From a virus, in the IMG/VR virus record IMGVR_UViG_3300027969_000042, positions 113,546 through 177,545 of that record: a DNA stretch of 64,000 bases, one strand, 5' to 3'. The notes under the pieces were generated by a model. That model ran no database searches. It was not told the DNA's origin and saw only the letters and a list, made by a program, of their open reading frames with translations. Made by a program: the position numbers and the translations under genes. Shown one piece after another: positions 19,076 through 55,964 of the stretch (position 1 is the stretch's first letter; every line of letters begins with the position of its first letter).

Positions 19076-20380
19076 TTAGAAGCCTCCGAAGATGTCCATC
19101 ACGACCGACAACCTTTTAGTTATTTCAGGTAAACCTAATGGTTCAATAATTGAATTGATTGGAGAAAGTATAGCTTTCGCGAACTGTTCGTCATAATCTA
19201 TCTCTGGAGCGAACTCATGAGGGTATGAACCTCTCATATAAGCAAACTGATCATTCACAGTTTTATCCTTACAAACATAATACTTAATCTTTGTACCCGA
19301 TTTAATAAATTCATATTTCTGTTGTGCTGCTCTATCCAAATTTAATAAGTAATTATGATAAGCAGCTGCTTTGACTGCGAAGTGAGCACCATTTACATAT
19401 CTCAAAGGTAAAACCTTATCATCAATAATTTTAGCATCATAGTTAGAACAAGAAGACTGCATTGCAATATCATCAATATCAGCTAGCTCAAACTCTTTTC
19501 TAAGATTTTTAACTAACTTCAATAATTCTTTTATGTTGAATGTATCTGGATTAGAAAATAAGTATCTTACAATATCTACAATCTTATCTCTTGCAAATAA
19601 AGGTGTAGATGATCTTACAAGTTCAACTCCTTTAGGGAATATGTAAGTCATAGGATCAAAGTTGATACCATCTTCATGTACAATATGCTGAATATATTTC
19701 TTTTTAGCAATATTGATAATTGATTCAGAAATCTTTTCTAACTCAAAGTCTTCTTTATTCTCTACTCCAAATGAAGCAGCATAATCTTCTAAACATTGTT
19801 TGAAATATCCACCATACCTAAAATGGTCTAAGCCTTGAATTAGTTCTAATTCACTAGTCCAATTCCATTTTATTTCTGATGTAAATACACCATCATTTAT
19901 CATACCATTAAGATTTCTATCTTTAATAAAATACCCATCAAATACTAATAGGTCATACGCATTACAAATTGTATCTTTTAATTCACTAACTGAATGAACA
20001 ACGGCAACGCAGTTTGGATTATTATGTCTTACTTTTTCTTTTGAAAGAACAATAAACTTTTTATCAATCTTATCAACTTCACTTAAAACTAAATTCTCCC
20101 AATCACAATGATCAATTGCTGGTTTAAATGATACAAATAATGAGTCAGTATCAGCATAAATACTAACATGTTCATTTTTATCAATTTGAGTAACATTTTT
20201 TATTCCTACTTTATCGTGTACTTCAAAATCAAGATGCCATTGGTTATACCAATAATCTTCATTTACTCTATCCATTGTTTTTGTAAGATCACGACCTTGT
20301 GCCGTTATTGTGCCTGCTACGTGATTATTATATAATATGAAGTAGGCCGTTGCGAATGCTCCGCTAATTTCCCCCACCAC
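19076..20380 (-). CDS. gp43: Family B DNA polymerase, C-terminal half (downstream part of interrupted gene)
   Basis: 434 codons from a GTG at 20380, but homology only begins at GGA 20362 (GAFATAYFILYNNHVAGTIT). This aligns without gaps to T4 gp43 GALGNIHFRYYDLRNATAIT, the second half of motif B. Motif C follows as IYADTDSLFVSF, then the palm and thumb. The exonuclease, motif A and first part of motif B are absent here. The missing part of motif B lies upstream at 20402-20527, separated by a stop and hairpin. The GTG start lies inside the hairpin and is an unlikely true start. The N-terminal half of the polymerase is not in this window; split gp43 genes are known in T4-like phages. Confidence 0.82.
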   Translation of the reverse strand: MVGEISGAFATAYFILYNNHVAGTITAQGRDLTKTMDRVNEDYWYNQWHLDFEVHDKVGIKNVTQIDKNEHVSIYADTDSLFVSFKPAIDHCDWENLVLSEVDKIDKKFIVLSKEKVRHNNPNCVAVVHSVSELKDTICNAYDLLVFDGYFIKDRNLNGMINDGVFTSEIKWNWTSELELIQGLDHFRYGGYFKQCLEDYAASFGVENKEDFELEKISESIINIAKKKYIQHIVHEDGINFDPMTYIFPKGVELVRSSTPLFARDKIVDIVRYLFSNPDTFNIKELLKLVKNLRKEFELADIDDIAMQSSCSNYDAKIIDDKVLPLRYVNGAHFAVKAAAYHNYLLNLDRAAQQKYEFIKSGTKIKYYVCKDKTVNDQFAYMRGSYPHEFAPEIDYDEQFAKAILSPINSIIEPLGLPEITKRLSVVMDIFGGF

Positions 20381-20401
20381 ATAACGTAGTGGGGGCTAAG
20401 C
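20363..20401 (-). other. 39-nt hairpin insertion in polymerase motif B (bypass-like element)
   Basis: Read on the minus strand: GCTTAG, stem CCCCCACTAC, loop GTTAT, stem GTGGTGGGGG, then AAATTAGC. The stem is 10 bp (one T-G wobble), very GC-rich in a genome that is otherwise strongly AT-rich. The outer ends GCT and AGC can also pair, so the flanking Tyr (TAT) and Gly (GGA) codons are brought together. Length is divisible by three. It includes an in-frame UAG. Excision or ribosomal bypass would rebuild motif B exactly. Confidence 0.75.
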
Positions 20402-20527
20402 ATAGGAGCCATTAAGCACAAGCTTCAATGCTGTCTGCATTGCGTTATAGTATTCAACATCTTTTTTTAGTTGTACTGCTTGTATCTTTAATGACTCTAT
20501 TTTTAATTTTTTTTCTTCTCTTGTCAT
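20396..20527 (-). CDS. Upstream part of interrupted polymerase: 43 codons ending in motif B
   Basis: A 43-residue frame, MTREEKKLKIESLKIQAV... ending ...MQTALKLVLNGSYA then UAG. The end KLVLNGSY is the first part of family B motif B (K-x-x-x-N-x-x-Y-G); T4 has KIAINSLYG. It is in the same reading frame as the downstream polymerase part and 39 nt from its matching Gly codon. It has an AT-rich promoter-like region before the ATG. It is too short to be found by length filters, and it is needed to complete the catalytic motif. Confidence 0.75.
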   Translation of the reverse strand: MTREEKKLKIESLKIQAVQLKKDVEYYNAMQTALKLVLNGSYA

Positions 20528-20591: not shown

Positions 20592-21455
20592 ATGATAAAG
20601 AATGACAAAATTAAAGTAAATATTTCATATAGGAATATTACACATTATATTAAATTAGGATATAATCCTATTTTAAATAAAGAATTAGAAATCGAAACTA
20701 ATCATTTATCAACATCATCACATGTTAAGATTGATGTTATATGTAAAATATGTGGAATCGAGAATAATATTATGTATTATAAATATATTGATAATGTTGA
20801 AAGACACGGTTTCTATGGTTGTAGAAAATGCTCCAGACAAAAAGCGGCAATGACATCATTAGAGAAATATGGAGTTGATAATTATAGTAAAACAAATGAA
20901 TGGAAGGATAGAGTTGAAAAAACAAATATTGATAAATTCGGTTATAAAACAAATTTATTATCACCTGATTATAAAGAAAGTATATCAAATATATTACTTG
21001 ATAAATATGGTACAAAAAATTGGTGGGAGATAAGAAATACTAATAAAAAATCAAAGTTAGTTATAATTGATAATATTATTAAAAATGTAATAATATATTC
21101 CGAAGATTTATATGATAACGGATTTATAAATGATAATTACCTTCTGTATAGAAATGAATGTAGAAGAATAACAAATTCTAATATTAAAAATCTAATGATT
21201 GAATGGAATGGTACTGATTACTATACTAAAGAGAATATATCGAATAATTTTACTCTACCACATAATGATCCTGGGTACCCAACAATAGATCATAAAGAAT
21301 CGGTTTATTTTGGATTTACTAATAATATAAGTTCCGAAGATATAGGTTCACTAGAAAATTTATGTATTACAAAAAGAGGTATAAACTCAACAAAAAGAGA
21401 TTTATGTGAATTGGAGTTTTTAGAAAAGTTTTTAAATAAAAAAGAAGAACATTAG
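20592..21455 (+). CDS. HNH-type homing endonuclease
   Basis: 287 residues. N-terminal region with a zinc-ribbon-like CKICG...CRKCS, then short repeats of the type EKYGVDNYSKTNEW / DKYGTKNWWE seen in phage homing endonucleases, and a C-terminal HNH-like segment: PTIDHKESVYFGF ... GSLENLCITKRGINSTKRD. The gene lies on the strand opposite to the polymerase and IF3, next to the interrupted polymerase motif B, and ends on the IF3 stop. Upstream is a perfect TTTAATATATA. A truncated relative of its N-terminal half lies at 49579-49986. Likely mobile; target probably the polymerase gene, by inference. Confidence 0.78.
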   Translation: MIKNDKIKVNISYRNITHYIKLGYNPILNKELEIETNHLSTSSHVKIDVICKICGIENNIMYYKYIDNVERHGFYGCRKCSRQKAAMTSLEKYGVDNYSKTNEWKDRVEKTNIDKFGYKTNLLSPDYKESISNILLDKYGTKNWWEIRNTNKKSKLVIIDNIIKNVIIYSEDLYDNGFINDNYLLYRNECRRITNSNIKNLMIEWNGTDYYTKENISNNFTLPHNDPGYPTIDHKESVYFGFTNNISSEDIGSLENLCITKRGINSTKRDLCELEFLEKFLNKKEEH

Positions 21456-38502: not shown

Positions 38503-39336
38503 TTAAGATTTTCTATATTTAATCTTTGTTTTACTTATAGAGATTGCTCTATCAAAAGTTTCTTTTTTTCTATCTAAATAAATAGTTGCATCTTTATAAA
38601 AAAATTCATAAAATCTTTCTATGTCACTAAAAGATCCCCAGTCTATAACACTATATGTTCCTTTTGGACATCTTATCTTATTCTTTTTTATTCCACAATA
38701 ATTCACTAATTTATCAACATAGACTTCTATAAAGTCTTTACTACCTGAACATATATTTACTTGACCTCTATCAGTTGTATCTCTGGAACCTTCTCTCTTT
38801 TTATGTATGGATATACATCCATCACCATCAAATACACCTCTCATAAAGTGACGTTCTAAATTTTTAGGTATTTCAGGATATCTAACTATCATTGTTTTTA
38901 CCGGATAAATACCTAAATTAAATAAATCACTTTTCATTTTTTCGGATGTGACGGTCAAACTACTACAATTACTACCGTCATTTTTAGTAAAAATATTACC
39001 TTCAAATTTTATATACTCTTTAAACTTATAAAGTATATCAGTATCTTTTTGTATTATACTAACTTGTGGAGTTCTACTATTGATATTACCATCTGCAACT
39101 ATAAATCCTAAAAAGTATGCTTTGTCTTCTGTATCTATATTTTCAAAGTAATCTTCATTTAGATTGTACTTTTTAACTTTATTTTTTATAATGTCACCAT
39201 TATCAATAATTACTTTTTTATAATGTCTATCTGAAATACCATATTCATTTATTATGTCCTTTCTTTTAATACCATTTTGTCTTTTAAAAACTATCTCTAG
39301 TTCTTCTTCCTTTGTAAGTTCTTTTAATTTTCTCAT
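38503..39336 (-). CDS. LAGLIDADG homing endonuclease
   Basis: 277 residues. The two LAGLIDADG helices are YFLGFIVADGN and HFMRGVFDGDGC. The N-terminus (LTKEEELEIVFKRQNGIKRK) looks like a helix-turn-helix. It is free-standing, upstream of the Dam gene and divergent from 39451. Its leader on the DNA (AT-rich ATATTATATATAAAAATT on the + strand just before the start) is the same as that of the EDxHD endonuclease at 55964. Selfish gene; target probably a nearby phage locus. Confidence 0.85.
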   Translation of the reverse strand: MRKLKELTKEEELEIVFKRQNGIKRKDIINEYGISDRHYKKVIIDNGDIIKNKVKKYNLNEDYFENIDTEDKAYFLGFIVADGNINSRTPQVSIIQKDTDILYKFKEYIKFEGNIFTKNDGSNCSSLTVTSEKMKSDLFNLGIYPVKTMIVRYPEIPKNLERHFMRGVFDGDGCISIHKKREGSRDTTDRGQVNICSGSKDFIEVYVDKLVNYCGIKKNKIRCPKGTYSVIDWGSFSDIERFYEFFYKDATIYLDRKKETFDRAISISKTKIKYRKS

Positions 39337-54366: not shown

Positions 54367-55062
54367 TTATCTCTTTCCATACTTGGTAAGACTGGTCTGC
54401 AGACGTTTTATATGATCTCTCATAACATTATATTTGTCTGATATTTCGTTATTTACATCATAGAAGTCACTTAGAATAGATGAGATTACTTCTTTATGTC
54501 TTTCATTTCTACTAGAAAGTTTTGCTTGCCAGATTTGTACTAGTTTTTGTGGATCATATTTATTGATAGGATGTTGTGAGTAAAGAAATCTAGGTAGTAG
54601 TTCTAAATGAATTCTATGAACCAAAACTAGTTGTACTGCATTAAACTCCATTAAAGCATATTCAAATCCAGAATTTAACAATTCTTTATACATTCCTTCA
54701 TAATTTACTTTTAAGAAAGTATTATTCTCAAAGTCTTTTGGTAGTATATACTTATCAAATATCTGAGCTCTTATCTCCATTGGAATAAAATTAAAGTTGA
54801 CTGCAAATAAAATTACTTTATCTTCAAATTTCTTAAAATCAACAACAAATACTGGTGCAAATCGCATCCAATTAGAATCATCTTTATATGTGAAGAAATA
54901 GAAACCACCAGGATAAATATCTCTTATATTTATAGATTCAACATCTTTATCAGATTTTTGATACTTTTCATAAAAAAAAAGTGAATTATTTTTAAAATTC
55001 TCAACAATTCCATTTCCATTATAAAGTAAACTTAATTTTACACGTTCTAATAATTCTCCCAT
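54367..55062 (-). CDS. Structural protein, probable head/neck component
   Basis: 231 residues. IYPGGFYFFTYKDDSNWMRF, APVFVVDFKKF and LFAVNFNFIPMEIRAQIFDK form a beta-rich core; the C-terminal half is helical with RRLQTSLTKYGKR-type end. I recall the PGxxxFFxY ... PVFVVDF pattern from T4-like phage virion proteins. It lies between portal and gp4 genes. The endonuclease gene upstream overlaps it by 16 bases, suggesting insertion right before this gene. Confidence 0.5.
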   Translation of the reverse strand: MGELLERVKLSLLYNGNGIVENFKNNSLFFYEKYQKSDKDVESINIRDIYPGGFYFFTYKDDSNWMRFAPVFVVDFKKFEDKVILFAVNFNFIPMEIRAQIFDKYILPKDFENNTFLKVNYEGMYKELLNSGFEYALMEFNAVQLVLVHRIHLELLPRFLYSQHPINKYDPQKLVQIWQAKLSSRNERHKEVISSILSDFYDVNNEISDKYNVMRDHIKRLQTSLTKYGKR

Positions 55063-55964
55063 AACTCTTGACTAAGTATTTTTTCTATCTTATTATAATC
55101 TTTATAACTTATTCTTAAAATTTTAATATTATTATCTAGACAATATTTATTTTTAATATTATCTTTTATTTTAGTTAATTTTAAAGTATCATCTCCACCA
55201 AAAAAATCAATTGACCTTGAATGTTGTTTACCGTCAAACTCAATACACATATTTTTTTCTTTTAAATAGAAATCAAATGGTAAACATTTTTTATATAAAC
55301 AATCATCAAATTTATATTCTCTATTAAATATAATATCATTATTCAATAGATAATCTTGTATTCTTAATTCACCTTTACTACTCGAACACTTGGGACATCC
55401 AGAACCATTAACGTGTGTATTTGGTTGTTGGTTAAAAATACCATGTTTCTCACATATTATATTTACTTTAATCTTATCTGATATATAATCAACTTCCGAA
55501 TAGTCATATTTATTATTATGTATTATTTTTGATTGTTCTATAAATTTATTTTTATTTAATTTTAATCTATCTATCTTGGAACACTGATTACAACCGTTTC
55601 TATTTAGGTGATTTACCGGTGTTTCCATAAATTCTCCGTGTACTGGACAAATTATTACCACCTTAGTATTTCTATTTATATAATCAACTTTCGAATAATC
55701 AAATTTGAAGTTATATTTCATATTCGATTTTTCTATAAATTCATTATTCTTCCTTTGATTAAAAGAAACCAACTTACTTGAACACTTTTTACAAATATTT
55801 CCCTGTATATGATTAAGAGGGGTTTGTTCAAATTCACCGTGTACTGGACAAATTATAACTACCTTTTCCATACAATTTATATAAATAGTCTTTGAATAAT
55901 CATAAGTATCATTATGTACTTTCTTACCCTTTAAAATGAATTCTTCCTTTGTTAATTTTTTCAT
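55047..55964 (-). CDS. EDxHD-type (Vsr-like) homing endonuclease
   Basis: 305 residues. Three repeats of a zinc-ribbon-like unit, type VIICPVHGEFEQTPLNHIQG plus CxxC, lead to a nuclease domain with MCIEFDGKQHSRSIDFFGGD, the ED-x-H pattern of EDxHD homing endonucleases. It is a free-standing mobile gene. Its 3' end overlaps the 54367 gene. The + strand sequence just before its start matches that before the LAGLIDADG gene at 39336. Confidence 0.85.
   Translation of the reverse strand: MKKLTKEEFILKGKKVHNDTYDYSKTIYINCMEKVVIICPVHGEFEQTPLNHIQGNICKKCSSKLVSFNQRKNNEFIEKSNMKYNFKFDYSKVDYINRNTKVVIICPVHGEFMETPVNHLNRNGCNQCSKIDRLKLNKNKFIEQSKIIHNNKYDYSEVDYISDKIKVNIICEKHGIFNQQPNTHVNGSGCPKCSSSKGELRIQDYLLNNDIIFNREYKFDDCLYKKCLPFDFYLKEKNMCIEFDGKQHSRSIDFFGGDDTLKLTKIKDNIKNKYCLDNNIKILRISYKDYNKIEKILSQELWENY

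What the first reader, a model, noticed from the sequence alone, without database searches (positions are those of the whole stretch)
20363..20527. A 39-nt stop-plus-hairpin element interrupts polymerase catalytic motif B
Seen: upstream frame ends K-L-V-L-N-G-S-Y-A then UAG; downstream frame resumes G-A-F-A-T-A-Y-F in the same phase. Dropping exactly 39 nt (GCT to AGC) joins Tyr to Gly and gives an ungapped match to T4 gp43 NSLYGALGNIHF. The element is a 10-bp GC-rich hairpin whose ends also pair. Known: T4 gene 60 has a 50-nt translational bypass with a UAG after the take-off codon and a hairpin, and it travels with homing endonuclease MobA. Here an HNH gene is next to it. Inference: a new bypass, tiny intron or other removal system protecting the cut site. 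A codon-matched hop (GCU to GCA) would give SYAFATA, one residue short, so the mechanism is open; readthrough would insert 13 residues in the active site.
Basis: partly seen in the sequence, partly recalled or inferred. Interest (0 to 1): 0.95.

Follow-up and report, generated by a model that had tools for sequence, protein, structure and literature searches.

The report
Likely ribosome-skipped hairpin in phage polymerase
A 39-letter hairpin with a stop signal sits inside the active-site code of this phage's DNA polymerase; related phages carry the same kind of hairpin in other essential spots, and the pattern suggests that ribosomes jump over it to make a normal protein.

Summary
In detail: minus strand, window 20363-20401, 39 nt between the Tyr and Gly codons of motif B in the C-terminal part of a split family-B DNA polymerase. 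It is not a lone accident. Of 65 related loci (not deduplicated), 39 carry a 36-48 nt hairpin element at one of six positions in this motif, 22 are uninterrupted and 4 were not scored. The same kind of element interrupts Walker A of terminase genes in 37 contigs.
In 48 distinct elements the hairpin starts 5-7 nt after a codon and lengths fall in all frames. At nine of ten site classes, 40 of 40 elements share the first two codon letters before and after the gap. Helix covariation is strong; the genes are under purifying selection. Homing-endonuclease genes often lie next door.
Best explanation: programmed translational bypass of a hairpin that masks a homing-endonuclease target, resembling T4 gene 60. 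The window's own site class is the exception: no codon match in 8 of 8 elements. I have no RNA or protein evidence.

The parts
20363..20401 (-). the 39-nt element (bypass candidate), between codon TAT and codon GGA
   Evidence: splice-aware alignment to the uninterrupted L002 protein places a 39-nt insertion in phase 0 after Tyr42; absent in L002
20402..20404 (-). putative take-off codon TAT (Tyr)
   Evidence: 6 nt before the hairpin, as in 42 of 48 elements
20396..20401 (-). 6-nt spacer GCT-TAG, in-frame stop at codon +2
   Evidence: stop at codon +2 in 41 of 48 distinct elements
20371..20395 (-). hairpin CCCCCACTAC-GTTAT-GTGGTGGGGG
   Evidence: helix covariation across 30 of the elements
20363..20365 (-). 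triplet AGC immediately before the resume codon; the landing triplet by position, not matched to TAT
20402..20527 (-). first 42 codons of the polymerase C-terminal gene, ending in motif B
   Evidence: same open frame in uninterrupted relatives; pN/pS of the last 31 codons of this part 0.18 in element-bearing genes
19076..20362 (-). rest of the polymerase C-terminal gene (428 codons plus stop)
   Evidence: Pfam DNA_pol_B, PHROG DNA polymerase
20592..21455 (+). divergent DUF7487 / HNH-like homing endonuclease gene next to the polymerase start
   Evidence: homologues at the same place in many element-bearing relatives; the HNH label is by eye

Best explanation
The 39 nt are a programmed translational bypass element. 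The ribosome reads to the Tyr codon. A GC-rich hairpin whose base begins 6 nt further on, with a stop codon between, stalls it near the mRNA entry; the peptidyl-tRNA lets go, the mRNA slides past the hairpin, and decoding resumes at GGA, giving the uninterrupted ...NGSY-GAFA... motif. In evolutionary terms the element is a target mask: it splits the conserved motif-B DNA that a neighbouring homing endonuclease is likely to cut, so the gene is immune while the protein stays unchanged. Element and endonuclease gene can move together by gene conversion. Shown here: the insertion, empty sites, many positions, lengths in all frames, helix covariation, near-fixed spacing, two-letter codon matching at nine of ten site classes, purifying selection, neighbouring endonuclease genes. 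Inferred: that the ribosome skips it, that the endonuclease cuts this motif, and how landing works at the window's own site, where codon matching is absent.
For: (1) Empty sites: 22 of 65 related loci read straight through, including the nearest relative L002. (2) 48 distinct elements in ten site classes of two unrelated genes, gaps of 36-48 nt in all three frames; near-identical genes differ by 1 nt (L045 42 nt against L046 41 nt, with 1842 of 1844 nt identical downstream; terminase T1 39 and 40 nt), so readthrough cannot be the answer. (3) Outside the window's site class, 40 of 40 elements match at codon letters 1 and 2 before and after the gap and 31 of 40 differ at letter 3; random triplets of the same gaps give 1.5 of 40 on average (maximum 8 in 20,000 draws). 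(4) Codon-to-hairpin spacing is 6 nt in 42 of 48 and 5 or 7 in the rest, while hairpin span (20-28) and tail (5-14) vary; stem-loops at the entry channel can hinder A-site tRNA binding (PMC7282821, passages). (5) In-frame stop at codon +1 or +2 in 44 of 48. (6) Helix covariation in 30 elements: 91% of cells paired, 8 of 11 pairs with changes on both sides, score 0.52 against 0.18 shuffled. (7) Both halves under purifying selection, pN/pS 0.18 and 0.27, uninterrupted genes 0.21 and 0.22. (8) A homology-free filter (open frame, 6-nt spacer, hairpin, two-letter match, open frame) on scanned hairpins passed 21 of 98 viral cases, 19 of them in polymerase or terminase, and 0 of 36 in cellular genomes. 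(9) Adjacent endonuclease gene in 14 of 23 element-bearing against 1 of 16 uninterrupted polymerases, p = 7e-4; terminases 13 of 35 against 4 of 71, p = 8e-5.
Against: No RNA or protein data. At the window's own site the triplet before the resume codon does not match the take-off codon in 8 of 8 distinct elements (AAC x3, TAA x2, AGC, CAA, GAC); 7 of 8 could form two pairs with a Tyr anticodon if G-U counts, a post-hoc reading. A 2-nt target duplication at insertion would also give two-letter matches, though not their steady place at codon letters 1-2 or the upkeep of both copies. Four of 48 elements have no stop in the first three codons. The endonuclease association is not significant when only independent tree pairs are counted (about 4.1 against 0.6, median p 0.22); 9 of 23 element-bearing polymerases have no such neighbour; and only relatives of the endonucleases found here were looked for, so other kinds could be missed on either side. 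No nascent-peptide signal was identified.
Confidence: 0.72

Rival explanations
1. The element is removed from the mRNA: a tiny intron or hairpin cut out and the ends joined by an unknown enzyme, leaving a normal message.
For: Would need no codon match, so it fits the window's own site as well as all others; the constant stem and C/G-run base could be an enzyme's mark.
Against: No Rfam family reached its threshold in the window. Splicing does not explain why two codon letters are kept on both sides while the third drifts or why codon-to-hairpin spacing is nearly fixed at 6 nt. I know of no enzyme that removes such RNA in bacteria (general knowledge).
Confidence: 0.15
2. The gene is simply split further: the stop ends a short peptide and the C part starts on its own, giving a polymerase assembled from three pieces.
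For: The polymerase is already split into N and C genes. The window has an in-frame GTG 18 nt before GGA.
Against: In other elements an in-frame stop lies directly before the resume codon (L015, L041: TAA-GGA) or before the landing codon (L019, L022: TGA-CTA), so the motif residues could not come from a new ATG, GTG or TTG start upstream. Terminase Walker A is cut in the same way. Codon matching would have no role.
Confidence: 0.05
3. DNA-level switch: the palindrome is excised or inserted in part of the phage population to turn the gene on and off.
For: Empty and filled sites in closely related phages (window and L002: 98% protein, 93.8% DNA identity).
Against: The flanks of window and L002 differ (71-90% upstream against 92-98% downstream), pointing to gene conversion and not clean excision. 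Codon matching is unexplained. Read-level data were not available.
Confidence: 0.04
4. Pseudogene or assembly artefact.
For: The gene is formally interrupted by a stop.
Against: 39 of 65 loci from many metagenomes, conserved hairpin, purifying selection on both sides, no second copy of the C part found.
Confidence: 0.02

Closest known systems
T4 gene 60 programmed translational bypass (50 nt), next to mobA
   Same: Non-coding gap with hairpin and stop codon inside an essential phage gene; an HNH homing endonuclease next door; gap absent in relatives (PMC5009743 and PMC3014915, passages). Two-letter codon matching is shared with 40 of 48 elements here.
   Different: The window's element lacks matched codons; the stop is one codon further on; gap 36-48 nt; the hairpin starts 6 nt after the codon in most; many elements, ten site classes and two genes instead of one case. 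A counterpart of T4's nascent-peptide signal (KKYK) was not identified.
byp elements of Magnusiomyces capitatus mitochondria
   Same: Short inserts that break reading frames and are thought to be bypassed; matched codons not always present (PMC5009743, passages).
   Different: 81 positions in one mitochondrial genome against at most one coding element seen per phage record here; bypass there is described as seemingly independent of mRNA context, here hairpin and spacing are strict. No sequence comparison was made.
Streptomyces phage Hau3 terminase (proposed bypass)
   Same: Terminase gene of a phage (PMC5009743, passages).
   Different: Described there as tied to a UUA codon, with a much shorter gap than gene 60; not compared by sequence.
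Frameshift-stimulating stem-loops (dnaX, HIV)
   Same: Hairpin placed just ahead of the P-site codon, able to hinder A-site tRNA binding (PMC7282821, passages).
   Different: Those inhibit at 11-12 nt from the first P-site nucleotide and are known for one-nucleotide shifts; here the hairpin begins about 9 nt from it and 36-48 nt would be skipped.

Membership tests
T4 gene 60-type programmed bypass | gap absent from homologous genes, both sides in one protein | tested here: met
[quoted passage not shown]
   window element TAT/AGC; 0 of 8 in its site class; 40 of 40 matched at letters 1-2 in the other nine classes
[quoted passage not shown]
   window stop at codon +2; in the set +2 in 41, +1 in 3, none in 4 of 48
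T4 gene 60-type programmed bypass | mRNA stem-loop at the take-off site | tested here: met
   predicted and covarying
T4 gene 60-type programmed bypass | nascent-peptide signal that drives take-off | not testable with these tools
   upstream peptide is conserved polymerase sequence, as in uninterrupted relatives
T4 gene 60-type programmed bypass | Shine-Dalgarno-like sequence 5' of the landing codon | not tested
   the G-run of the hairpin lies 5 nt before AGC, but it is part of the stem
T4 gene 60-type programmed bypass | full-length product made from the gapped mRNA | not testable with these tools
   needs protein data
T4 gene 60-type programmed bypass | homing endonuclease gene adjacent | tested here: met
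   window 20592-21455; 14 of 23 element-bearing polymerases
byp elements (M. capitatus) | many copies in many genes of one genome | tested here: not met
   52 records searched: 39 with a model hit, 37 of these with an element in polymerase or terminase, no second coding one seen; the model missed one known element (L032), so copies unlike the rest could be missed
group I / group II intron | conserved catalytic core | tested here: not met
   0 Rfam matches in the window; 36-48 nt is too short (general knowledge)
intein | open reading frame with intein motifs | tested here: not met
   in-frame stops in 44 of 48 and 36-48 nt length; long inserts ending in HN, which look like inteins, sit at a different site, DTD|S, in some relatives

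The most novel reading that the evidence does not exclude
A widespread class of phage 'hop cassettes' exists: a short conserved hairpin that ribosomes skip, placed by homing in the catalytic motif of essential genes (polymerase motif B, terminase Walker A) together with endonucleases of several families (DUF7487, GIY-YIG and HNH_3 by Pfam). Programmed bypass, so far known in phages mainly from T4 gene 60, would then be common, and at the polymerase Tyr-Gly site it would work without a cognate landing codon.
Probability: 0.55. Interest if true: 0.96.

Novelty: new variant of a known kind. Interest (0 to 1): 0.93.

Why it matters
Programmed bypass in phages has been worked out in detail for one case, T4 gene 60 (PMC5009743, PMC11194080, passages). 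This set offers 48 natural variants with a simple shared layout (codon, 6 nt, hairpin, short tail, codon) in two genes, which makes the rules of take-off and landing testable by comparison. It also gives a concrete test of the idea that such gaps act as shields against homing endonucleases, because elements and endonuclease families can be paired. Gene callers would read these essential genes as broken, so the class may be hidden in existing annotation.

Tried and rejected
Readthrough of the stop: rejected, gap lengths fall in all frames. Second intact polymerase: not found in the record. Rfam: no match. tRNA or tmRNA: none in the window. Exact 45-nt window sequence in viral contigs: none. Taking the codon after Tyr as take-off fails for the GTT/GTC elements (judged by eye).

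The genome-contig scan gave 49 stretches. A homology-free filter over all of these passed 18 of 60 hairpins (17 in polymerase or terminase, L163 a chance context), 3 of 38 (2 polymerase, L488 chance), 0 of 36 from genome contigs. Model hits outside the polymerase in G027, G039, G029 and G009 are followed by T-runs or lie in no long frame. Tree test of the endonuclease link on independent pairs: not significant; row L045 was misread at its intein-like insert and has a false long branch, so the tree's change counts (24 for site, 15 for presence) are approximate. The upstream identity for L015 was misaligned by 30 nt; the correct figure is 68 of 96.

Rows dropped: L004 and L034 (contig end at the site); L064 and L065 (same alignment as L063, not opened); L370 (match starts inside the gene); near-identical polymerases, where L015 also fell out; loci L035, L042, L048, L054, L063, L128 and L192 (all but L035 have the endonuclease neighbour); terminase loci with under 900 nt (element) or 500 nt (empty) upstream; 18 of 48 elements not in alignment A2.

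Full report
What is there. The window is part of a 177,545-nt virus record, 29% GC. On the minus strand a gene starts at 20527, runs 42 codons to ...KLVLNGSY, meets GCT-TAG, a hairpin and AAATTAGC, and goes on as GAFATAYF... to 19076. The product is the C-terminal part of a family-B DNA polymerase; an N-terminal part lies elsewhere in the record. No second copy of the C part was found. A homing-endonuclease-like gene of Pfam DUF7487 lies divergently next to the start.

Relatives. A protein search of viral contigs gave 65 loci, some of them near-identical phages. Splice-aware alignment placed a 36-48 nt insertion between codons in 34 loci and the window; five more (L035, L042, L048, L054, L063) carry one upstream of a long intein-like insert. 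22 loci are uninterrupted in motif B, L004 and L034 are cut at the site, L064 and L065 were not opened. The sites are six: before ALKL (A), before LKL (B), Tyr|Gly (C, the window), at Ser (D), at Gly (E), at Val (F). The nearest relative, L002, is empty with 98% protein identity; L003 and L005 are filled with different tails. L015 (site C) and L016 (site A) are 98% identical downstream but share only 68 of 96 nt upstream, and the window is 92-98% identical to L002 downstream but 71-90% upstream, where it is 88-95% identical to L005. This is what gene conversion at the site would leave. L071 and L072, from 642- and 635-kb uncultured phage records, are uninterrupted.

A second gene. Two pattern scans and one homologue search found the same kind of element in terminase large-subunit genes, at the Walker A loop: 31 contigs of group T1 (GGTSS-S|KT), two of T2 (GGTSA|GKT), two of T3 (GGAA|GGGKS), and L176 and L328 (T4, GGTSAG|KT), 37 in all. 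T1 and T4 take the same place in the motif with different residues. T3 was called a terminase by eye; T1, T2 and L176 match terminase families. Of the relatives of L176, 2 of 79 loci inspected carry the element and 76 read through; L388 has a different small frame break. The nearest named relatives of T1 are Flavobacterium phages at 51% identity, with Bacteroides and Phocaeicola phages at about 40% in the listed 40 of 924 records, so hosts in Bacteroidota are likely but not shown.

Anatomy. 48 distinct element sequences were compared. Gap length is 36-48 nt, in all three frames. L045 and L046, identical at 1842 of 1844 downstream nt, differ by one nucleotide in the gap. The C-run starts 6 nt after the codon in 42, 5 in 2 and 7 in 4. 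An in-frame stop is at codon +2 in 41, +1 in 3 and absent from the first three codons in 4. In nine site classes (40 elements) the codon before the gap and the codon ending it match at letters 1 and 2 in 40 of 40 and differ at letter 3 in 31. In class C (8 elements, the window included) they do not match. Elements within a class are related, so these are not 40 independent events. Helix covariation in 30 of the elements is strong: 91.2% of cells paired, against 73% shuffled and 48-55% when slid; 8 of 11 pairs have changes on both sides. A covariance model searched over 52 whole records hit 39; in 37 the hit is the polymerase or terminase element, in G029 and G039 a terminator; extra hits opened were terminators or non-coding, and the model missed the known L032 element.

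Specificity. A filter that uses no homology (open frame, 6 nt with a stop, hairpin, two-letter codon match, open frame) passed 21 of 98 scanned viral hairpins, 19 of them in polymerase or terminase, and 0 of 36 from cellular genome contigs.

Selection. In 23 deduplicated element-bearing polymerases pN/pS is 0.18 before and 0.27 after the gap; in 16 uninterrupted ones 0.21 and 0.22. Both parts are therefore used as protein.

Endonucleases. DUF7487-type genes (and one GIY-YIG gene, L049) lie next to the polymerase start in 14 of the 23 and in 1 of the 16 (L037, GIY-YIG; Fisher p = 7e-4). Some matched DUF7487 only weakly in Pfam, and L005 not at all, though it is similar to the others in sequence. 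Upstream of the terminase, endonuclease homologues (HNH_3 in L285, L308 and L277 by Pfam; L310 and L328 judged by eye) were found in 13 of 35 element-bearing against 4 of 71 uninterrupted loci (p = 8e-5; the query proteins came partly from these loci). Only relatives of these endonucleases were sought. Counting only independent pairs on the tree, the trend remains but is not significant.

Mechanism. The two-letter match with a free third letter, its place at codon letters 1-2, and the near-fixed codon-to-hairpin distance are what codon-anticodon re-pairing and a ribosome-scale ruler would give. A 2-nt target duplication could create the match, but would not keep both copies while tails and stems diverged. 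Stem-loops at the mRNA entry can hinder A-site tRNA binding (PMC7282821, passages), and T4 gene 60 forms a stem-loop in the A site before take-off (PMC11194080, passages). I therefore commit to bypass. The weak point is class C: the triplets before the resume codon are AAC, AAC, AAC, TAA, TAA, AGC, CAA and GAC. Seven of eight could form two pairs with a Tyr anticodon (recalled as GUA) if G-U counts. M. capitatus is reported to lack perfectly matched codons in several cases (PMC5009743, passages), and a paper title cited in PMC3014915 says minimal pairing can suffice. This is a post-hoc argument.

Literature. Eight searches of the held library showed no report of such elements in polymerase or terminase genes among the papers listed; the lists were partial and the library lacks most subscription journals, so this is not proof of absence. 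Passages of five papers were seen; none was read whole.

Verdict. The feature is real, part of a wider and, as far as these searches go, undescribed class, and most likely works by programmed translational bypass that lets a gene keep a shield against a homing endonuclease. Proof needs RNA and protein experiments.

Noticed in passing
L035, L042, L045-L048, L054, L055, L063-L065 (polymerase at DTD|S): Long insertions ending in HN at motif C look by eye like inteins; several of these polymerases also carry the hairpin element upstream.
   Followed up: partly
G000:C1:90567-90968 (outside the window): An N-terminal part of the polymerase is encoded about 43 kb away; relatives with a full upstream stretch also start the C gene at a similar short peptide.
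   Followed up: partly
L388, upstream of 783: Terminase Walker A region has a small frame break without a hairpin; sequencing error or a different event.
   Followed up: no
window 38503-39336 (-) and 55047-55964 (-): Two further ORFs look by eye like homing-type endonucleases (no database search was run on them).
   Followed up: no
L045 5931-5973 against L046/L047 5932-5973: Near-identical phages differ by one G in the G-run of the element (42 against 41 nt), showing that gap length is free to change frame.
   Followed up: yes
L022 and L024 5284-5568 (+): A short stretch similar to the DUF7487 endonucleases lies near an element-bearing polymerase, perhaps a remnant left after endonuclease loss.
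   Followed up: no
L390, L391, L393, L395: Homologues of the L328 putative endonuclease lie upstream of an uninterrupted terminase; they may cut elsewhere or be protected by sequence.
   Followed up: no
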